From positions 1-22,343 of IMG/VR virus record IMGVR_UViG_3300013123_001011: DNA of 22,343 bases; one strand, 5' to 3'. This document shows, in pieces, positions 1,052 through 22,283 of this stretch. This stretch comes from a virus. Each line of letters begins with the position of its first letter. The stretch's first letter is position 1. The position numbers and the translations under genes were made by a program. Below the pieces are notes generated by a model that was not told where the DNA came from, made no database searches, and saw nothing but the letters and a program-made list of their open reading frames with translations.

Positions 1052-2014
1052 TTAACACGAGGGCTGAAGCATCTCAGCTTCAGCCCCGGTCGTCGCTTCG
1101 GTTTTCGTCGTGGCTCGTTTGGGACGTTGGCTCTTGCCCCACTTGAAGGCCGAGTCGCCGGGAATCCGACTCAATAAATGCTTGCGGACTGACTTAAAAC
1201 GCTCCCCATTCAATCCGAGGGCGCTGATGAGCAGCACGCGCATGTCATAGCGCCCCGAGGCGGGATCAAAGGTGCGTTTTTTCGCGCTGGCGGCTTTGCT
1301 GTTGATGGCTTTCGCCAGCAGCGCCATGCAAAAGATAATCGCGGCACGGACCTCGCCGGCGTGCAGTGAGCCTTGCCAGGCTCGAACCTCGACGGCTGTG
1401 CGGACAAACCAACCGTTTAAATTTATCCCGCAGTATCTCGACTGATCGTAGCGTTGGGGATGCTCGGTGTAGTGTCCGTACCACTGCGTGTTGAGTTGGC
1501 GGAACGTCCTGGGCGGGTTGGCGCAGATGCGCCGGATGAAGTCCGGGTTGAGCGGCTTGCAGTAGCGGGCCTTGCGGGCGTCGCTCACCCCGAGCGCGGC
1601 GTAGATGATCTCCTCCTGCTTGTAGACCAGTTTACAGAGATTCGCCAGCGCTTTCGGGGTCACATCCGGGTGAGAAATGTGGATGTGCAATCCTGCATCG
1701 GCACCGGCTTTCGCTCCAGCGCGGCGCACCACCCGGATAATTTCCTGAATCTGAGGTATGTCGTCATAGCCCAGGACAGGAGAAACAATTTCCGCCCGTT
1801 TTTCCGGCGGCGCACTCGTCAAGCTGCTGTCCGCCACCACAGTCCACACCAGCCCGCGCGCGTCGGTTATGCGATACGGATCGTAACACGTGGGGGTGCC
1901 GACATGTTCGACGGTTCCCCCGACGACGCTGCGGATCGCCTCTGCCACTTCGCGCCGGGTGAGCATGGTGGTTTCGATCTCCAGACCGATCTTAATTTCC
2001 TCGAGCGTTACCAT
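1052..2014 (-). CDS. Amidoligase_2-type COOH-NH2 ligase
   Basis: The 320-residue protein has the signature of the amidoligase family (Amidoligase_2), which shares its fold with glutamine synthetase and gamma-glutamylcysteine synthetase. Visible motifs are GLEIE (10-14), ADSSLT (61-66), EIVSPVL (75-81), GLHIHIS (108-114) and RYCGINLNGW (193-202) followed by VEVRAW (208-213). The first Glu, the His pair and the late Arg/Asn/Glu positions are those expected to hold Mg-ATP and the carboxylate. Such enzymes form amide or peptide bonds with ATP, but the substrate here is unknown. The last ~30 residues are basic and Thr/Ala-rich, so probably disordered. GGAGG lies 5 bp before ATG. It heads a three-gene unit with a DUF5049-like gene and a glutaminase, separated from the tail genes by a terminator. 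Confidence 0.85.
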   Translation of the reverse strand: MVTLEEIKIGLEIETTMLTRREVAEAIRSVVGGTVEHVGTPTCYDPYRITDARGLVWTVVADSSLTSAPPEKRAEIVSPVLGYDDIPQIQEIIRVVRRAGAKAGADAGLHIHISHPDVTPKALANLCKLVYKQEEIIYAALGVSDARKARYCKPLNPDFIRRICANPPRTFRQLNTQWYGHYTEHPQRYDQSRYCGINLNGWFVRTAVEVRAWQGSLHAGEVRAAIIFCMALLAKAINSKAASAKKRTFDPASGRYDMRVLLISALGLNGERFKSVRKHLLSRIPGDSAFKWGKSQRPKRATTKTEATTGAEAEMLQPSC

Positions 2015-11256: not shown

Positions 11257-12663
11257 TCACCCTCCGCAGACCTTCACGATGCGCCGACCCAGCCATTCCA
11301 TCACGTTGACGCACACGGCGTTGCCCAACTGGTGGTAGCGTTTGGCATCAGACTGGCCCTCGGTCCAGCCATCCGGGAAGCCTTGTAAGCGTTCGCATTC
11401 CAGCGGGGTGAGACGGCGCACGATAAAGCCGGTCTCGTCTCCCTCGGCGATGGCCACCTGCCCGCCGCCGTTGGCACGGCTCTCAGCATGATTCATGGCA
11501 CGCAACGTCGGCGCCAGGGCATCGACATCCCGTCCATCATCTTTGCCGCTGAACGCCAGCAGCACCGGAGCGGCGTCGCCTTTGCCGGATTCCCCGGCCT
11601 GTGCAGTCAGGCAGGGGACAATGCTGTCCGGTTCCCCACGGCCATTCCTGGCGTAACGCGGCTGAAAGACCAGCGGCAATCCCCGACCGGAGCCGTCCTC
11701 ACTGGAGTCATGGCGGGCAGTCAACGCGTGGGTGACGACGATGTTCTGGCATTCGTCACCACTCGGCCCGCCGGTGCCTTTGGCCCACTTCGCGCAGACC
11801 GTCCCGGCAACCGTATCCGGTTCACAAATCACCGGCTGATAGTTGAGCGACCATCCCCCCGAGGGTTTCGCCTGCAGCGTTTGTGTCACATCGCCGGTCT
11901 CGTTGAGATTCCGGGCGTCGAAGGCGACAAGCTGCCCGGCCTGCGCTTTGTTGTCATCGGGCCGAGCGACGCCGGTGGTCAGCGTGCCGCAGACCAGGAA
12001 CGCTACCTCGGTGCGCTCGTTGCCTGTGCGACTGACGCCAGCGCCGCTTGCAGTACGGGTGGGAGTGACCGGCCCCGTTTCTCGGCACGCCGCAGGATGC
12101 CAGCACACGCCTTCGGGGTCAAAGAGTATTTCGCCGCCACGCTGGGCTCCAAAATCCGCGACAGTGAACACTCGGCGCCGCCGCTGCGCCACTCCAAAGT
12201 ACTGCGCGTTAAGTACTGCCCAGGCGATATCCTGCGCCCCGCATTCTTCCAGCGCCAACAGGGCTGCGGTGAAGTCACCTCCACCGTTGCTACTGAGCGC
12301 CCCTGGTACGTTCTCCCAGACAGCGAGAGCAGGCTGAAGTTCATCAATAACTCGGATTGCTTCGAAGAAGAGACCGCTGCGCGCATCCGCAAACCCTTTC
12401 TGTTTCCCGGCAAGGCTCAACCCCTGACAGGGGGAACCGAAGAAGATGACATCGACCGGCGGGAGATTATGGGCACCGACATGGCGCACATCGTCATGGA
12501 GTGGCAGACCGGGAAAGTGCCGAGTCAGCACCTGCCGGCAAGACGGGTCGATCTCCACCGCCCAGCGACACACCATCCCCGCCTGTTGCAAACCCAGCAC
12601 CCCGCCACCGATGCCACTGAACAAATCACCAAAGGTAAGTCTCCGACCACTGCATTTCACCAT
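11257..12663 (-). CDS. DNA (cytosine-5) methyltransferase
   Basis: The 468-residue enzyme has all main C5 methyltransferase motifs. Motif I is DLFSGIGGG (13-21, AdoMet binding) and motif IV is FGSPCQG with nucleophile Cys79. Motif VI is ENVPG (117-121), motif VIII is QRRRRVF, and motifs IX/X are RLTPLECERLQGFPDGW and QLGNAV near the C-terminus. The 220-residue stretch between VIII and IX is the target recognition region and is long and Gly/Asp-rich, so specificity cannot be read. It sits inside the neck/tail operon, 2 bp after a neck gene and 1 bp before the terminator gene. No partner endonuclease is seen, so it is an orphan methylase, probably for restriction evasion. Confidence 0.95.
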   Translation of the reverse strand: MVKCSGRRLTFGDLFSGIGGGVLGLQQAGMVCRWAVEIDPSCRQVLTRHFPGLPLHDDVRHVGAHNLPPVDVIFFGSPCQGLSLAGKQKGFADARSGLFFEAIRVIDELQPALAVWENVPGALSSNGGGDFTAALLALEECGAQDIAWAVLNAQYFGVAQRRRRVFTVADFGAQRGGEILFDPEGVCWHPAACRETGPVTPTRTASGAGVSRTGNERTEVAFLVCGTLTTGVARPDDNKAQAGQLVAFDARNLNETGDVTQTLQAKPSGGWSLNYQPVICEPDTVAGTVCAKWAKGTGGPSGDECQNIVVTHALTARHDSSEDGSGRGLPLVFQPRYARNGRGEPDSIVPCLTAQAGESGKGDAAPVLLAFSGKDDGRDVDALAPTLRAMNHAESRANGGGQVAIAEGDETGFIVRRLTPLECERLQGFPDGWTEGQSDAKRYHQLGNAVCVNVMEWLGRRIVKVCGG

Positions 12664-14211: not shown

Positions 14212-15330
14212 TTATCCGGCGGTCACGGTGACCGTCTTCGTCGCGGTGGCCGTCTGCCCGGCCTTGTCGGTGGCGACCAGCGTGATGCGATAGTTGCCCG
14301 CCAACGCGTAGGTGTGCTCGTAGCTCTGGCCCGCGGTCACACCATCGGTTACCTCGTCATCGCCCCAGAGCAGCAAGAGATTAGCGAGCCCCGTATCCCC
14401 ATCGGTGGCACTCGGCACCACGGAGACCAGCAGGTTCGTCGTGGACGGCGTGCTCAAACCGACCGTCGGCGGGTTGTTGACGCCGCGCAGCTTGATCTTC
14501 ACCAGGATGTCCGGGCGCAGGATGCCTTGGCCGAGTTCCGACCAGACCAGCCAGCCGGTTTTGAACCGCTCCTTGCGGTCGATGGCCTCGGTTTTCAGCG
14601 TCTCACGGATCGGCATTTTGCCGACTTCCTCCTCCGGGAGGATAAGCACTTCGTTCAGCGCCGCGGACGCGGTGAGCAGGATGCCGCCGGTGCCGTAGTT
14701 CTTGATCACGCCCTTGGTGCGCAACTCCAGTTGCGTCTGCGGGTCGAGATCCCAGCCGCGCAGGTCGTTGAAACGGCGCCCACGCATGACGATGTATTTG
14801 GCGGACAACTCCAGGTCTTCCAATATGGAGATGGCCTCGTTCAGCGCCGCCTCGGTGATGACGCTGCCCGCCACCTCAATGGTGTTGGCACTCGGCACTG
14901 CCGCGGACACCACGTTGATGCTGCGCTTGTCGATCTCCTTACGGATTTCATCGGCGGCGGCCTGCTGGATATCCATCAGCGTGCCGATGTTGCCGTTCTT
15001 CAAGACTGACACGTCCACCATCGGGTTCGAGTGGATGCGGTTGGTGCCGAATTCCACTTCGTCCTGGCCGAGTTGCTGCTCGCGGATTTCGCCTTCGGTG
15101 GAAATCCAGTAGGCTTTCACGCGCGGCTTCTTCTGATAGAGCGGGCGCTCCCCCTTCGGCAGCGTGTGCTGGGTCAGGAGCAGCGAGGAGATTTCCTTGC
15201 GGGCAATCTCCTGCTCGATGGGCGCGGCGATAGCGGCTGCCAGCGCGCGCATCCCTTCCGGGGATTCCAGCGCCTGGCTCATCAACTGCGCCATCTTCGC
15301 CATATACGCTTGATTCATGGTCGTTTTCAT
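14212..15330 (-). CDS. Major capsid protein with C-terminal PKD/Ig-like domain
   Basis: The 372-residue protein has two parts. Residues 1-282 have the layout of a HK97-fold major capsid protein: a helical N-terminus, NPMVDVSVLKNGNIGTLMDIQQA (about 102-124), DEIRKEIDKRSINVVSAA, the LSAKYIVMRGRRFNDLRGW core and a strand-rich end (LVKIKLRGV). Residues 284-372 carry a PKD-type fold: NPPTVGLS, LLLWGDD (318-325), EHTYALAGNYRITLVATDKAG and TKTVTVTAG. The second part would project as an Ig-like knob on every subunit. AAAGGAG lies about 12 bp ahead of ATG. It follows the probable decoration gene. Identity as capsid rests on position and pattern. Confidence 0.82.
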   Translation of the reverse strand: MKTTMNQAYMAKMAQLMSQALESPEGMRALAAAIAAPIEQEIARKEISSLLLTQHTLPKGERPLYQKKPRVKAYWISTEGEIREQQLGQDEVEFGTNRIHSNPMVDVSVLKNGNIGTLMDIQQAAADEIRKEIDKRSINVVSAAVPSANTIEVAGSVITEAALNEAISILEDLELSAKYIVMRGRRFNDLRGWDLDPQTQLELRTKGVIKNYGTGGILLTASAALNEVLILPEEEVGKMPIRETLKTEAIDRKERFKTGWLVWSELGQGILRPDILVKIKLRGVNNPPTVGLSTPSTTNLLVSVVPSATDGDTGLANLLLLWGDDEVTDGVTAGQSYEHTYALAGNYRITLVATDKAGQTATATKTVTVTAG

Positions 15331-15347: not shown

Positions 15348-15710
15348 TTACAGCACCAGGCGGAATTTCAGCAGGCCACCGTCGATGGCGATGACGCGGG
15401 CGATGACGTGCTCACCCTGCTGCACGCCGGAAGTCAGCTTGCCGTTCGCCGACACCTTCAGGTCGTCACCGGCCTGCATGGTGCCGTCGAACACGTCGGT
15501 TTCATACACGCCGCCGTTGCAATACACGCCCGGCATGTCGCCGTCCTTGTAATCCTTGGCGAGGATGCCAAAACTCTTCAGCGCGGGATCGGTGTTGACG
15601 GCGAAGCGGTCATTGCCGACCAGCCGGACCACCTGCCCCAGCGCGCCCGCGCCTTGCAGCGTCCCATCGCCATAGCTCAATCCCTGATGGACAGGGGTGA
15701 TATAGGACAT
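15348..15710 (-). CDS. Putative capsid decoration/cement protein
   Basis: The 120-residue protein is Gly-rich and strand-rich: GALGQVVRLVGNDRFAVNTDP, KSFGILAKDYKDGDMPGVYCNGGVYETDVFDG and a C-terminal strand with FRLVL. Small beta proteins of this size lying next to the major capsid gene are usually head decoration or stabilisation proteins. It has a very good AAAGGAGA site ahead of ATG, and the capsid gene starts 17 bp after its stop. It lies 112 bp after the fusion gene, so it may have a separate expression level. The call is from position and composition only. Confidence 0.58.
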   Translation of the reverse strand: MSYITPVHQGLSYGDGTLQGAGALGQVVRLVGNDRFAVNTDPALKSFGILAKDYKDGDMPGVYCNGGVYETDVFDGTMQAGDDLKVSANGKLTSGVQQGEHVIARVIAIDGGLLKFRLVL

Positions 15711-15822: not shown

Positions 15823-16404
15823 TTAGGCTTGTGTCCGCGCGATGCGCTCGTCATAGGCTTGCTGGAATCCGCGCTTAAGCTGGTCTTCCAGCGACTCGTT
15901 CCGATCATCCACGTCCAGCGGGCGCACGCCGGCGTCGGTGCGCAGCGGCGTGGTGTCCTGGCTGGCAGCCTTGGGCTTGTCACAACCACAATCGGTCTTG
16001 TCGGCGTGACTGTTCTTGTCGGCGGCATCCGTTTTGCCGGGCATGGCCTGCTGCGCCATCTTTGCATACGCCTGTTCCGTGGCGGCGAAGGCCTCATCCG
16101 AGAGGCCGGCCAGGCGACCCACCTCGGCGTCCTTCTCCTCGTCGGTGCCGAACTTCAGACCTTGCCGTTCCAGCTTGCGCACCAGCGTCTGGGCTTTCGT
16201 GCGATTGGCGGCGGCTTTCTGTGCGGCCAGCAATTCGTCCACCTGCTGTTGCAGATCGAGCACCTGTTGTTTCAATTGCTGGTTTTCTTTCTCCAGCGCT
16301 TTCACCCGCTCGGCGTCATTGGCCGGCGGTGTGCCGCCGCCCGCGGGCGGCGTGGTCTTTTTGGCGGCGTCAGTGTCAGCCGCGTCGCGGTTCGGTTCGT
16401 CCAT
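15823..16404 (-). CDS. Nested scaffold protein from internal in-frame start
   Basis: Within the fusion gene, Met1008 is preceded by AAGGAG with 5 bases before ATG, one of the better ribosome sites in the window. Translation from it gives 193 residues beginning MDEPNRDAADTDAAKK. The product is charged and disordered at its start, has a coiled coil (VKALEKENQQLKQQVLDLQQ and onward), a Gln/Ala segment, a CGC motif and an Arg-rich C-terminus ending AYDERIARTQA. This composition is that of a phage head scaffold. The layout copies lambda C/Nu3, where the scaffold is made from an internal start in the protease gene. Independent expression is inferred, not shown. Confidence 0.62.
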   Translation of the reverse strand: MDEPNRDAADTDAAKKTTPPAGGGTPPANDAERVKALEKENQQLKQQVLDLQQQVDELLAAQKAAANRTKAQTLVRKLERQGLKFGTDEEKDAEVGRLAGLSDEAFAATEQAYAKMAQQAMPGKTDAADKNSHADKTDCGCDKPKAASQDTTPLRTDAGVRPLDVDDRNESLEDQLKRGFQQAYDERIARTQA

Positions 16405-19400
16405 CGTGTCTCCTTCCGAGTGATCGGCCCCCTGTGAGGCCACCTGTTTTCCCTTCGCGTGATGACCGGGCGCCAATTCGCCAGATGACAGGCGATCCGC
16501 GTCATCACCGGCGATATGGGCATTGGTGGCGGCGACTTGCGTAATGCGCGCGTTCTCGTCGGCCCCTTTGCGGTCGAGTAGCCCGAGGCCGGTGAACGTC
16601 ACGCCGTGCAGGATTTCGTAGACGGGCTGGCCTTGAAAATCGCCGCCCTTATACTTGCGCAGGTGCAGGCAGTAGTCGTTTTTCGACTGGGCGCGCTTGC
16701 CGCAGACCGAGCACTCGCCCTCCGCGTAATCGCACTCCATCGACACCTGCGCGATAATGCCGGTCTTCATCAGCTTGTAGGCGAGCGGGGCGTTGGGGGC
16801 GTCCTGCACGAACAACTCGCCCACGCACTCCACCCGCCCCCCGGTCTCGTCCTCCACGTAGTCGGAGGACACGATCCCGCCGACGATGTCGGTGACATCC
16901 TGCGAGTGCTTCAGATCGATTTTCTTGTTGACGGCGGTCACGTAACGAGAGGAGAGTTCCTCGGCGGTGAAATGGTCGCCGTTCTTGTTCGTGCCCACCC
17001 GGCAAAGGATGCAGGTGAAACGCGGATCGCCTGTTCCTGGCGTGACGGATTGCGCATCCGCCGCCAGGCGCACGTCAACCGGCACGCTGGTGTGGCAGTT
17101 AGCCGGACGCGCGTCGGCCTGCGCCGACTTCGCGGTCTGCCGCGGCTTCGACGAGACGAAGAGCAATTCTTTCGCGAACTGCCCCCCGGCGCCATAGCTG
17201 CGCGCCATGTTGTACTCGACCTCCATCGCTTTCCGACGCACCAAGCCGTAATGCTCGCCGAGAATGCGCCCGATCTCCGCTTCATCTGGGTACGCCTTGT
17301 CCCGGTAGGAGAGCAGCACCGTGCCGTACTTGCCGCGCGACTCACGGGCGAGTGATGCCATCAACTCCTGCATCGATTCACGTGTAAAGGTGGTGCGCGA
17401 GGGGTAGTTCCGCCGCCCGTTGTCGAGAATCTGCTTATCGGCCCAGCGGGTCATCAACCCCTCGACAAAGTGCAGATCGTTCTCGTAATCGTTCCGATTG
17501 AACGAGGTAATGTACGGCGGATCGAGATAGAGCGCGTCGGCGCCGAGTTTCCGTACCGCCTCCACCGCATCCAGATTGAACGCCTTGCACGCCGTGCCGT
17601 TATCGAAGACCAGCCCGTTGAGCCGTTTCACCGTCGCGCGGAAGGTGGCGACGAATTCGGAGACCGGCACGTTGGTCAACTGTGAATTGGACAGCCCGGC
17701 ATCCGTCTCCAGCGACGCTTTCGCATTCTTCTTCGAGCGGTTGAACTGGCCGAAGGCCGACTTCGCCTTCACCGTGGTGCCGAGCGCCGCCAGCGCCAGG
17801 TCTTTCTTGTAGCCGGGCAGCGTCTGGATATTCGCCCACACCTGATCAAGCCACGCCAGCACCGGCTTCGAATAGTAGAAGCCATGGAAGGTGCGCACGA
17901 TGAAATCGCCGGCGTCGGCATTGGGCGCGAGCAAGCGCTGTACATCGTCATCGCTCAAGGTCTCGTGGCTGTTCTCCACCACGGCGCGCGCCAGGTGGTA
18001 GGGATAGCGCAACAGATCATTGGCAAAGACCTGCAGCCCCTGCCGTTTGAAATGGTAGGCGACGTTGGCCCCGCCGGAGAACGCGTCGAGGATGGACTTC
18101 GCCTCTTTCGGCACCTGGCGAGCGATCCAGCCGAGCATGACGTATTTCGATCCCATGTAGCCGGTCACGCGCACCGGGTCATCGTCCTTGCCCGCCATGC
18201 AGGTGAGCAGTGCCAGGTCGTCTTCAATGCCGGTAATCGTCAGGACATCAGCGGCATCATCCGCTTTCGCCGATCCTTGACCGGCGCAGATAAACAAATA
18301 CTCTTTCGCGTTCGACGCATCGCCATGCCGCGAGGAGATCGAGTAATGGTGATCGTGCGAGCGCAGCGAGACAGTGCGTTTCCCCACCTCGGCGATGATC
18401 GAGCGCATCTCCGTTTCATTCGGATAGGCATGGTCGCGGTAGGAGATTAGCCAGTGCGGGATATGCGTGGCGTTCCCCAGGAACTCGGTGAAGAACGCGT
18501 TGGCATTCGCCTTGGTCACGGTCTGGTGATCGGTGCGGTAGTGATGGGTTTTCGTGTCCTCGTTGATCTCCAGCCCGTCCCAGTACGTCATCAACCCTTC
18601 GACGAAGTGATAGGACTTCTCGTAATTGGTGGTCGAGAACTCGGTGGCATACGGCGGGTCGAAGTAGGCCAGATCGACTTTCACCTCACCGAGCAACGCG
18701 TTGATATCCTTCTGGTACGCCTTGCAGTCTTTGCCGTTGCTGAAGACCAGCGCGTTGATGCGGGCGACGTTCTTGGCAAAGCGCTGCGTGAACTCGTCCG
18801 GCGTATCCTGACGCTTGCCATAATCGGTGCTGCTGGAGAAGTGGCCGAAGCCCCCCTTGCCGGACATGCACGTCTTGCCGAGCGCGAAGAGCGCGATGTC
18901 TTGCTTATAGCCCGACAGCGCGTCGATGTTGGCGCGCACCTGGTCGATGATGGCATGCACGCCCTCGGCAAAGAACAATCCGTTGAATTTGTCGCGCACG
19001 AAGGTGCCGGCCTTGCCGTTGGGCTGCAGCAGGGCGTGCAATTCCTCGCTGCTGACGCGGGTACCGTCATTCTCGACAATCGCCCGCGCGGCATGATAGG
19101 CGTAGCGCAGCCGGTCATTGGCGACGACCCGCAGGCCTTTCGTTTTGTACATATAGGCGACGACTGCCGACCCGCTGAAGGCATCGCACGCCGAGGCGAT
19201 GCCGTCCGGCGTGTGCTTCCAGATCCACTCTACGAGCTTTTGCTTCGAGCCGATGTAGTTGGTGACGTATTTCGGTCGCTCACCTTCGGGGAGTTCCTCG
19301 GTGGTGAGGTCGACCGCCGGCTCCTGGTCGGCGCCGAAAGCCTGCAAGCCCAGAAAGCCGTGCATGTCGGCTTCGGCTTCCAGCAGGAACGCTATGCGGT

Positions 19401-19425
19401 CCAGATCGGTGGCAAAGAGTTGCAT
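15823..19425 (-). CDS. Fusion: two D12 N6-adenine DNA methyltransferase domains + prohead protease + scaffold
   Basis: One uninterrupted 1200-residue frame. Residues 1-52 are a leader. Domain 1 (about 53-383) has NYIGSKQK, AdoMet motif DAFSGSA (81-87) and DPPY (256-259). Domain 2 (about 419-760) repeats the plan with TGYMGSK, DAFSGGA (447-453) and DPPY (635-638). Both are D12-class (Dam-like) N6-adenine methyltransferases with catalytic motifs intact. After a linker, residues 802-960 resemble a HK97-type (U35) prohead protease: DLKH with candidate His840, GGIVSSDY, GELFVQDAPNAPLAYKLM, and Ser895 in QVSMEC. A Cys/His knuckle follows (C905, C908, C919, H921). Residues 1038-1095 are coiled coil and the rest is charged scaffold. 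The protease-scaffold half fits its place before the capsid gene. Methylase fusion to it is odd. It starts the structural operon behind a divergent promoter region. An internal start at 16404 could release the scaffold. Confidence 0.85.
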   Translation of the reverse strand: MQLFATDLDRIAFLLEAEADMHGFLGLQAFGADQEPAVDLTTEELPEGERPKYVTNYIGSKQKLVEWIWKHTPDGIASACDAFSGSAVVAYMYKTKGLRVVANDRLRYAYHAARAIVENDGTRVSSEELHALLQPNGKAGTFVRDKFNGLFFAEGVHAIIDQVRANIDALSGYKQDIALFALGKTCMSGKGGFGHFSSSTDYGKRQDTPDEFTQRFAKNVARINALVFSNGKDCKAYQKDINALLGEVKVDLAYFDPPYATEFSTTNYEKSYHFVEGLMTYWDGLEINEDTKTHHYRTDHQTVTKANANAFFTEFLGNATHIPHWLISYRDHAYPNETEMRSIIAEVGKRTVSLRSHDHHYSISSRHGDASNAKEYLFICAGQGSAKADDAADVLTITGIEDDLALLTCMAGKDDDPVRVTGYMGSKYVMLGWIARQVPKEAKSILDAFSGGANVAYHFKRQGLQVFANDLLRYPYHLARAVVENSHETLSDDDVQRLLAPNADAGDFIVRTFHGFYYSKPVLAWLDQVWANIQTLPGYKKDLALAALGTTVKAKSAFGQFNRSKKNAKASLETDAGLSNSQLTNVPVSEFVATFRATVKRLNGLVFDNGTACKAFNLDAVEAVRKLGADALYLDPPYITSFNRNDYENDLHFVEGLMTRWADKQILDNGRRNYPSRTTFTRESMQELMASLARESRGKYGTVLLSYRDKAYPDEAEIGRILGEHYGLVRRKAMEVEYNMARSYGAGGQFAKELLFVSSKPRQTAKSAQADARPANCHTSVPVDVRLAADAQSVTPGTGDPRFTCILCRVGTNKNGDHFTAEELSSRYVTAVNKKIDLKHSQDVTDIVGGIVSSDYVEDETGGRVECVGELFVQDAPNAPLAYKLMKTGIIAQVSMECDYAEGECSVCGKRAQSKNDYCLHLRKYKGGDFQGQPVYEILHGVTFTGLGLLDRKGADENARITQVAATNAHIAGDDADRLSSGELAPGHHAKGKQVASQGADHSEGDTMDEPNRDAADTDAAKKTTPPAGGGTPPANDAERVKALEKENQQLKQQVLDLQQQVDELLAAQKAAANRTKAQTLVRKLERQGLKFGTDEEKDAEVGRLAGLSDEAFAATEQAYAKMAQQAMPGKTDAADKNSHADKTDCGCDKPKAASQDTTPLRTDAGVRPLDVDDRNESLEDQLKRGFQQAYDERIARTQA
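16402..16416 (-). promoter_or_regulatory. Internal ribosome binding site inside the fusion gene
   Basis: On the minus strand AAGGAG (complement of 16410-16415) is followed by 5 bases and ATG (16404). It is in frame with the protease/scaffold reading frame. A consensus site inside a coding sequence, placed exactly between the protease and scaffold regions, supports use as a second start. Confidence 0.6.
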
Positions 19426-20890: not shown

Positions 20891-21379
20891 TTATCGCTCC
20901 CGCATCGCTTGCACGGCCCACTCCTGGGCCATCGACGCCAGTGCCGTCCGCACGAACCCGTACCGCTCATCACGCCGTGCGGGACGCGCCTCCAACCGCG
21001 CGCGCCAGGCAGACAGCTCAACGATCTGTTCGTCGTCGCAGAACGGCACCAGCAGCGCACACTCCAGCGACCGCCCCTCGTCATCGATCACCGCAAACAG
21101 CAGTGGAGGGTCTTCCGCCGACCAGTTGACGATGCGATGCACGTGGAAGCCGGAATGGTGTTCGCCTCCCTCCTCAAAGCCTTGCACGGCATAGACAACA
21201 GCGATGTGCTCCGTGCCGGGAACCGGCGTCATCGCCAGATAGACCACCGTCCCCAGGGGCACGGCAAAGCCATCCGCCCACCGCAGCGTGCCTATCGCAC
21301 CCTGGGTGTTGACCGCGTCCATGCATGCCTGCAGCGTGTCCAATGGTTTCTGCCGATCTGTGGCTTGGATCGGTTTCAA
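20891..21379 (-). CDS. Hypothetical protein, middle gene of a three-gene unit
   Basis: The 162-residue product is soluble and mixed alpha/beta. It has ADGFAVPLGTVVYLAMTPVPGTEHIAVVYAV (about 35-65), HHSGFHVHRIVNW (about 74-86), LLFAVIDDEGRSLECALLVPFCDDEQIVELS (about 92-122) and an Arg-rich C-terminal helix. The VVYLAMTP strand and HHSGFHVHR stretch do not match a family I know. It overlaps the upstream gene by ATGA and leads the 122-residue gene by 2 bases, so the three are co-translated. No transfer or regulation signals of its own are visible. Confidence 0.62.
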   Translation of the reverse strand: MKPIQATDRQKPLDTLQACMDAVNTQGAIGTLRWADGFAVPLGTVVYLAMTPVPGTEHIAVVYAVQGFEEGGEHHSGFHVHRIVNWSAEDPPLLFAVIDDEGRSLECALLVPFCDDEQIVELSAWRARLEARPARRDERYGFVRTALASMAQEWAVQAMRER

Positions 21380-22212
21380 AATCCGCTATATCCTTTCTTC
21401 GCGCCGGGGATGACGTGGATGATATCCTCCACCTTGCGCCCATCGGGCAGCTTGGTGATGCCATGCTGCTGGAACACCGCGAGCATCCGCCGCTTGGCCT
21501 CCGGGGAATCGAGCACCAGACAGTCGAGATTGTCCAGCAACGTCACGTTCTGCTTGAGGATGGTCTCGTTATTGCTGCTGGTCTCGGCGATCCGCTTCCA
21601 CTGTGCCGGGGCAGCGACGTGCTTGCGGGCGACGTGATCTCCGTAGCACCGGCCATAATGGTCGGTCTCGTAGACGATGGTATCCGTGCGCTGCGCCACG
21701 CCGGGTTTCAGGTAAAAGCCCATCTCCCCTTTCGATTTCGCCCCACGCGGGTCGGGTCGCCAGCGGGTGAAGACATAGTTGGCACCCCCGGAGGCCATAT
21801 CCGCTTCCGGCGACATGCCGCCAGGTTTCAGCCCGATACGCAGTTTTTCCGTGGTCGAGAGCAGCGACCCATTGTGCGCGAGCGCCTGATCGACCATCGT
21901 CACGTAGGCATCCGACCCCTCACCGACAATCTGGTGCATGAGGTTGTAGCCGCGCATCTCGCGGGAGATATCCAGGTCAAAACGCTCGCTTCGGCGATAC
22001 CCTATCGGCTCGCTTGCACGCCGGCGACGGGTGTCGTACTGATAGACGCCGGCGGGATGATAGCGCGGCAACTTCCGCACGTCTTCCACCCCCAGTCGTC
22101 CATTCCAGAATTGCACCATCCGCTCGACACGCTCGGTCATCGGGGCCTGCCGCTGCTCCAGTTGCCGCATCATCTGCTGGTAGCTCGCATCGTCCAGGGG
22201 GAGCCGATTCAC
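21376..22212 (-). CDS. Hypothetical phage protein with GGANYVFTR motif, first gene of the unit
   Basis: The 278-residue product has a helical N-terminus (ASYQQMMRQLEQRQAPMTERVERMVQFW, 9-36), an Arg-rich region (YDTRRRRASEPIGYRRSERFDLDIS) and a core with GLKPGGMSPEADMASGGANYVFTRW (126-150), MGFYLKPGVAQRTDTIVYETDHYG and KQNVTLLDNLDCLVLDSPEAKRRML. Sequences with GMS-D-GGA-VFTR remind me of phage minor head or MuF-linked proteins, but I cannot name the family. The start is GTG at 22212 with a poor ribosome site, and the frame stays open 12 codons upstream, so it may be a truncated or 5'-altered gene. It is coupled to the 162-residue gene by ATGA. Confidence 0.6.
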   Translation of the reverse strand: MNRLPLDDASYQQMMRQLEQRQAPMTERVERMVQFWNGRLGVEDVRKLPRYHPAGVYQYDTRRRRASEPIGYRRSERFDLDISREMRGYNLMHQIVGEGSDAYVTMVDQALAHNGSLLSTTEKLRIGLKPGGMSPEADMASGGANYVFTRWRPDPRGAKSKGEMGFYLKPGVAQRTDTIVYETDHYGRCYGDHVARKHVAAPAQWKRIAETSSNNETILKQNVTLLDNLDCLVLDSPEAKRRMLAVFQQHGITKLPDGRKVEDIIHVIPGAKKGYSGF

Positions 22213-22283
22213 GACGGCGACTTGATGCAGGTACAGGTATTCCTGATATTATGTGTCGCGCAACATAATATCAGGTATGTGTC
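22213..22283. promoter_or_regulatory. Divergent control region at the right edge
   Basis: Between the minus-strand gene start and the possible plus-strand gene lies an AT-rich stretch with TATTAT-like boxes in both orientations and the inverted repeat at 22242-22275. No clean -35/-10 pair can be chosen. It probably holds promoters for one or both sides. Confidence 0.35.
22242..22275. repeat. 13-bp inverted repeat at the right edge
   Basis: CCTGATATTATGT and ACATAATATCAGG are perfect reverse complements separated by 8 bases (GTCGCGCA). The sequence is AT-rich inside a GC-rich region. Just downstream TATGTGTCG and TATTATGTG recur at 22276-22284 and 22290-22298. It could be an operator between divergent genes, a recombination site or a hairpin. 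The repeated short words suggest multiple protein binding sites. Confidence 0.55.

What the first reader, a model, noticed from the sequence alone, without database searches (positions are those of the whole stretch)
15823..19425. DNA methyltransferase pair fused to capsid protease and scaffold
A single 3.6-kb open frame joins two D12-class adenine methyltransferase domains (DPPY at 256-259 and 635-638) to a prohead-protease-like domain (candidate His840, Ser895) and a coiled-coil scaffold. Protease and scaffold normally stand alone before the capsid gene. I know of no described phage where the methylase is part of that protein. The fusion would bring the methylase into the procapsid, with possible release by the protease. 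It could methylate DNA at packaging, or be ejected with the genome as an anti-restriction protein.
Basis: partly seen in the sequence, partly recalled or inferred. Interest (0 to 1): 0.85.

Follow-up and report, generated by a model that had tools for sequence, protein, structure and literature searches.

The report
Methylase built into phage capsid protease
In a large, uncharacterised group of tailed phages the protease that matures the virus shell is made only as the tail end of a DNA-methylating enzyme, which suggests that the enzyme is carried into the forming virus head, probably to shield phage DNA from bacterial restriction.

Summary
Window 15823-19425 is one 1200-aa open frame, on the minus strand: two D12-class adenine methyltransferase (MTase) domains, a prohead protease, a coiled-coil scaffold.

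It is not an assembly error. A query holding only the protease-scaffold part recovers the same fusion everywhere: 102 of 105 protease genes with enough upstream DNA (91 of 94 distinct) have the MTase in the same frame. The other three are broken frames or a fragment. One-MTase and two-MTase forms occur. All 136 MTase domains keep DPPY, and dN/dS is about 0.03-0.11.

The protease assignment, weak by plain HMM, is now firm: HK97-gp4-type profile match (E 6e-7; H840 and S895 align with H65 and S114), a pLDDT-90 model matching phage proheadases and herpes proteases, and a conserved zinc-finger insertion.

New here: a conserved Shine-Dalgarno plus start codon (ATG, GTG or TTG) opens the scaffold at residue 1008, a lambda/Mu-style nested scaffold. 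No conserved start precedes the protease, so it is apparently made only joined to the MTase.

Protease-scaffold nesting is ordinary; the MTase is the unusual part. Carriage into the procapsid and anti-restriction are inferred, not shown. PHROGs already holds the family, labelled only 'DNA methyltransferase'; I found no paper describing the fusion.

The parts
15823..19425 (-). Fusion gene, 1200 aa: MTase 1 - MTase 2 - prohead protease - scaffold
18256..19269 (-). D12-class N6-adenine MTase domain 1 (residues 53-390; motif FSG, DPPY 256-259)
   Evidence: Pfam PF02086; HMM and motif survey
17131..18177 (-). D12-class N6-adenine MTase domain 2 (residues 417-765; DPPY 635-638); lost in the one-MTase relatives
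   Evidence: tree
17095..17130 (-). Variable linker between MTase 2 and the protease; no start codon here in the window, and no conserved start with Shine-Dalgarno here in relatives
16528..17094 (-). HK97-gp4/S78-like prohead protease domain (residues 778-966), beginning at the conserved HTSxPV strand
16906..16908 (-). Catalytic His840 codon (aligned with HK97 gp4 His65)
16741..16743 (-). Catalytic Ser895 codon (aligned with HK97 gp4 Ser114)
16663..16713 (-). Zinc-finger-like insertion C905-x2-C908-x10-C919-x-H921, invariant in the family and in phage G and Pupper
16410..16415 (-). Shine-Dalgarno AAGGAG, 5 nt before the internal start
15823..16404 (-). Nested scaffold frame from internal ATG (residue 1008 to 1200, 193 aa, coiled coil)
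   Evidence: SD plus start codon in 84 of 94 distinct homologues; next-best column 10%
15348..15710 (-). Small head protein between scaffold and capsid gene (weak match to a PHROG labelled head scaffolding protein; decoration-protein position)
   Evidence: conserved next to the fusion in relatives
14212..15330 (-). Major head protein (phrog_2522, E 1e-82) with a C-terminal PKD domain
21379..22248 (-). C-terminal end of the giant MuF-domain protein upstream of the fusion (cut by the window end)
   Evidence: 73% identical to L002 4139-5005, the end of a 1664-aa MuF protein

Best explanation
This is a late head-assembly gene of tailed, contractile phages with a Mu-like head module. It makes two products. 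The full-length chain (MTase-MTase-protease-scaffold) is expected in few copies. The scaffold alone, made from the internal start, is expected in many copies (translation start supported by strong conservation; copy numbers inferred from lambda and Mu). The shared scaffold tail would draw both into the procapsid (inferred), so the N-terminal MTase rides inside as a passenger of the protease (inferred). The protease then digests the scaffold and cuts itself, freeing the MTase within the head (inferred). The adenine MTase (catalytic motifs and purifying selection shown, activity inferred) methylates phage DNA, either while it is packaged or after being ejected with it, and so protects it from host restriction (inferred).
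For: Fusion kept in 102 of 105 informative genes, recovered with a query without the MTase. DPPY kept in 136 of 136 MTase domains; dN/dS 0.03-0.11 for the MTases, 0.02-0.07 for the protease. Protease identity: hhalign E 6e-7 with catalytic residues aligned, AF2 model pLDDT 90, Foldseek to proheadases and herpes proteases, PHROG head maturation protease matched by 12 of 13 members. Scaffold internal start in 84-86 of 94, with codons ATG/GTG/TTG interchanged while the amino acid changes. No conserved start for the protease alone. Head-module order TerL, portal, MuF, fusion, small head protein, capsid. Precedent: P1 DarB, an adenine MTase carried in the virion head that protects incoming DNA (PMC5512222, PMC12810830).
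Against: No virion proteomics, methylation or restriction data. No conserved cleavage motif was established in the linker. The MTase could act in the cytoplasm before assembly. In one-MTase forms an ATG lies 7 codons before the conserved protease start, without a Shine-Dalgarno, so a little free protease cannot be excluded.
Confidence: 0.58

Rival explanations
1. The MTase works in the cytoplasm on replicating or concatemeric phage DNA as part of the full-length protein. The fusion only ties its timing and amount to late gene expression; it is not carried in the virion, or is degraded in the procapsid.
For: The MTase is in a late operon and has intact motifs. Phage MTases that act before packaging are common (general knowledge). 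No cleavage or packaging data exist.
Against: The position at the protease N-terminus, with scaffold at the C-terminus, would take it into the procapsid unless it is cut off earlier; a separate gene in the same operon would serve the timing purpose equally well.
Confidence: 0.27
2. The MTase domains serve mainly as a DNA-binding or procapsid-tethering module that couples head assembly to phage DNA; catalysis is secondary.
For: The fusion is nearly obligate, while one domain (MTase 2) can be lost.
Against: Catalytic motif DPPY kept in every copy, which a mere binding module would not need.
Confidence: 0.08
3. The C-terminal part is not a prohead protease, and the similarity is coincidental.
For: The window protein alone gives only E 0.03-0.06 to S78 and 0.1 to the HK97 proheadase model, and PHROGs labels the whole family DNA methyltransferase.
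Against: Profile, fold, catalytic residues, gene order and nested scaffold all agree.
Confidence: 0.03
4. Assembly error, frameshift artefact or decaying pseudogene.
For: A few relatives have broken frames (L028, L092, L108, L113, L118).
Against: About 90 distinct intact genes and strong purifying selection on both halves.
Confidence: 0.01

Closest known systems
Lambda gpC/Nu3 and Mu-type nested protease-scaffold genes (e.g. KS10 gp28/gp29, PMC2628397)
   Same: Protease with C-terminal scaffold, scaffold also made from an in-frame internal start, just before the capsid gene
   Different: No methyltransferase in those proteins; lambda gpC has a different protease fold (own knowledge)
HK97 gp4 / Pfam S78 prohead protease family; close branch phage G gp19 and Pupper gp94
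   Same: Fold, His and Ser positions; phage G and Pupper also share the zinc finger
   Different: Here an MTase is fused at the protease's N-terminus; HK97 gp4 lacks the zinc finger and is a stand-alone protein
P1 DarB and other polyvalent proteins (PMC5512222, PMC12810830)
   Same: An adenine MTase associated with the phage head, proposed to protect DNA from restriction
   Different: DarB is an EcoKI/TaqI-like MTase fused to an SF2 helicase, not to the protease or scaffold; here the MTases are D12 class
D12 MTases of type II restriction systems (plasmid partners of DpnII- and AlwI-family enzymes; tandem forms in pGS18 and phi1605)
   Same: Same MTase class, about 28-33% identical; tandem two-domain chains exist
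   Different: Those stand beside a restriction enzyme; the phage MTases form a separate clade on a long branch and lie in a head-assembly gene
phrog_27806
   Same: Its 798-position profile spans one MTase plus protease plus scaffold; the window protein is a member (1218 bits)
   Different: Labelled only DNA methyltransferase; protease, scaffold and nested start not noted; the two-MTase form is longer

Membership tests
D12-class N6-adenine DNA methyltransferase | PF02086 match above cut-off, SAM motif F-x-G and catalytic DPPY in each domain | tested here: met
   151.6 bits against cut-off 22; FSG or near in most, DPPY in 136 of 136 domains
D12-class N6-adenine DNA methyltransferase | Adenine methylation at a defined DNA site | not testable with these tools
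   No site could be inferred; word-frequency test uninformative
HK97-type (S78) prohead protease | Homologous fold and sequence profile | tested here: met
   hhalign E 6e-7, probability 92%; Foldseek BFVD annotated proheadases at about E 2e-9, PDB herpes proteases as top four hits at E 0.004-0.013
HK97-type (S78) prohead protease | Curated Pfam/NCBIfam threshold for the protein alone | tested here: not met
   S78 14.7 bits against 21; HK97 proheadase 12.8 against 59; a divergent branch
HK97-type (S78) prohead protease | Catalytic His and Ser | tested here: met
   H840 and S895 invariant and aligned with H65 and S114
HK97-type (S78) prohead protease | Gene placed just before the capsid gene in a head module | tested here: met
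Nested protease-scaffold gene (lambda/Mu type) | In-frame internal start with ribosome-binding site before a coiled-coil C-terminal part | tested here: met
   84 of 94 distinct homologues; next best position 10%
Nested protease-scaffold gene (lambda/Mu type) | Separate scaffold protein observed | not testable with these tools
   needs proteomics or ribosome profiling
DarB-type virion anti-restriction protein | MTase-SF2 helicase dyad with EcoKI/TaqI-like MTase | tested here: not met
   D12 class, no helicase domain
DarB-type virion anti-restriction protein | Presence in the virion and protection in cis | not testable with these tools
   no experimental data

The most novel reading that the evidence does not exclude
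The MTase is a built-in virion passenger: it enters the procapsid as part of the maturation protease, is freed by that protease, stays in the head and is ejected with the genome, so that the phage methylates its own DNA in the new host before restriction enzymes cut it.
Probability: 0.3. Interest if true: 0.85.

Novelty: new variant of a known kind. Interest (0 to 1): 0.62.

Why it matters
Enzymes get into phage heads by routes that are poorly understood. A conserved covalent link between a DNA-modifying enzyme and the maturation protease would be a simple loading device: one enzyme per protease copy, freed when the head matures. It would extend the P1 Dar idea to a different enzyme class and a different loading route, and it gives a testable handle on when phage DNA becomes methylated. 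It also explains an annotation blind spot: in these phages the protease and scaffold are hidden under the label DNA methyltransferase, so the head module looks incomplete. The zinc-finger protease branch, shared with phage G and large actinobacterial phages, is a second item for structural work.

Tried and rejected
Assembly error: rejected by about 90 distinct intact copies. Independent start for the protease: one-MTase forms have an ATG 7 codons upstream of HTSxPV but without Shine-Dalgarno, two-MTase forms have nothing conserved. First AlphaFold job (423 aa, 22 sequences) was unusable, pLDDT 53. PDB sequence search found no relative of the protease beyond zinc fingers and none of the MTase. 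Palindrome word counts gave no hint of the MTase target; GATC is slightly low but so are others. Searches for a Mu transposase (PF02914, PF09299) rang nowhere, controls included, so they say nothing. Inserts between the MTase domains and before the protease in relatives match no Pfam family. A shared protease cleavage motif between linker, scaffold and capsid protein was looked for by eye and not established. Papers describing such a fusion: none found in the open-access library; subscription journals and preprints were not searched.

Full report
WHAT IS THERE. Window 15823-19425, minus strand, is one open frame of 1200 aa. Pfam finds two D12-class N6-adenine MTase stretches (E 4e-44). PHROGs finds phrog_27806, labelled DNA methyltransferase, over residues 416-1196 (1218 bits), so a family joining one MTase to the C-terminal part was already clustered, without its other functions being named. 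The window is a 22-kb fragment of a virus record. On the same strand follow a small head protein, the major head protein, neck and tail genes including a sheath, and baseplate genes: a contractile-tailed phage.

IS IT CHANCE OR ERROR? No. The full protein found five viral relatives covering it end to end. A query of residues 782-1200 only, without the MTase, found 35 loci in bacterial genomes, and a query of protease and scaffold found 80 viral loci. Of 105 protease genes with at least 1.4 kb of DNA upstream, 102 carry the MTase in the same frame (91 of 94 distinct); the three exceptions are two frameshifted genes and a fragment. One more relative, at a contig edge, has a stop codon between the two parts (L028). 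Two forms exist: MTase-protease-scaffold (about 800 aa) and MTase-MTase-protease-scaffold (about 1170-1370 aa). In the tree all second domains form one group and all first and single domains another (the split around the first domains is less well supported, 81/92; two rows labelled single there are two-domain genes cut by a contig end), so the single form most simply arose by loss of domain 2. All 136 MTase domains keep DPPY. dN/dS is 0.03-0.11 for the MTases, 0.02-0.07 for the protease and 0.09-0.19 for the scaffold.

THE PROTEASE. Taken alone, the window sequence reaches only E 0.03-0.06 against Peptidase_S78, below Pfam's cut-off. The family does better. Twelve of 13 aligned members match PHROG head maturation protease phrog_18299, best E 2e-21. 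Profile-profile comparison with HK97-gp4-type proteases gives E 6e-7, probability 92%, and sets H840 against HK97 H65 and S895 against S114. An AlphaFold model from 45 sequences has mean pLDDT 90. Its best matches in the viral library are phage G gp19, Pupper gp94 and, further down, annotated proheadases; its first four matches among solved structures are herpesvirus maturation proteases, at E 0.004-0.013. An inserted C-x2-C-x10-C-x-H element, invariant even in phage G and Pupper, looks like a zinc finger. The conserved HTSxPV strand at 778-783 resembles the start of phage G gp19 (MIKYTFPVKI), so the MTase appears to be joined at the natural N-terminus of the protease. Phage G gp19 (300 aa) and Pupper gp94 carry no MTase in front.

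THE NESTED SCAFFOLD. At residue 1008 a perfect Shine-Dalgarno precedes a start codon (AAGGAG, 5 nt, ATG in the window). Of 94 distinct homologues, 86 have ATG (73), TTG (7) or GTG (6) at that column, and 84 also have a strong Shine-Dalgarno; the next-best column in the region reaches 10%. The start codon is kept while the residue changes between Met, Leu and Val, and the Shine-Dalgarno is kept while the peptide changes, so selection acts on the DNA signal. L114 has its own signal a few codons away. [quoted passage not shown] The homologues are related sequences, so these counts are not independent trials. No comparable signal stands before the protease.

HOW IT PROBABLY WORKS. Shown: gene order, domains, conserved motifs, purifying selection, a conserved internal start signal. 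Inferred: the scaffold tail brings the full-length protein into the procapsid, the protease digests scaffold and linker, the MTase is left inside, and it methylates phage DNA at packaging or after ejection. P1 DarB is the nearest precedent for an adenine MTase in a phage head that protects DNA from restriction (PMC5512222, PMC12810830), but DarB is another MTase class fused to a helicase. The main rival is that the MTase acts in the cytoplasm before assembly. Sequence alone cannot separate the two.

CONTEXT. In relatives the module runs TerL, Mu-like portal, giant MuF-domain protein, small genes, fusion, small head protein, capsid protein. MuF proteins fused to other domains are thought to be injected effectors (PMC5512222), so this operon may carry more than one passenger. 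Among the closest MTase relatives outside the family are partners of DpnII- and AlwI-family restriction enzymes at about 28-33% identity, separated by a long branch; the target site is unknown.

VERDICT. Observation confirmed, with strand and the protease-scaffold remark corrected; interpretation partly supported. New variant of a known kind: a Mu/lambda-type nested protease-scaffold gene with a near-obligate N-terminal adenine MTase. Interest 0.62.

Noticed in passing
window 11257-12663 (-): A C5-cytosine DNA methylase gene sits inside the structural operon between neck and tail genes; it is 91% identical in L004, while no counterpart of that length was seen at this place in L002, so it looks like a movable extra gene.
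   Followed up: partly
L002 14-5005, L009 205-4383; window 21379-22248: The upstream gene is a giant MuF-domain protein (1393-1664 aa) with a conserved C-terminal region of unknown function; a candidate injected effector.
   Followed up: partly
L002 6551-7561: A Ser/Thr protein kinase gene lies between the MuF gene and the fusion gene.
   Followed up: no
L212 3728-8353, L213 3695-6181: Phage-G-like prohead proteases appear to be interrupted by large insertions that look like inteins, splitting the domain near the catalytic Ser or the zinc finger.
   Followed up: no
L009 6480-6875 and equivalents: Most two-MTase relatives carry an extra stretch of about 135 aa between the MTase domains, with no Pfam match; the window lacks it.
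   Followed up: partly
L011 and L025 (Desulfosarcina alkanivorans chromosome): One genome holds two prophages of this family, one with two MTase domains and one with a single domain.
   Followed up: no
L012-L015: Very similar genes occur in MAGs assigned to several phyla, which suggests one phage binned into different MAGs rather than an enormous host range.
   Followed up: no
window 14212-15330 (-): The major head protein carries a C-terminal PKD domain; L009's capsid protein is shorter (287 aa) and may lack it.
   Followed up: partly
window 1052-2014 (-): An amidoligase-like gene (phrog_2443, E 3e-66) lies downstream of the baseplate and tail-fibre genes.
   Followed up: no
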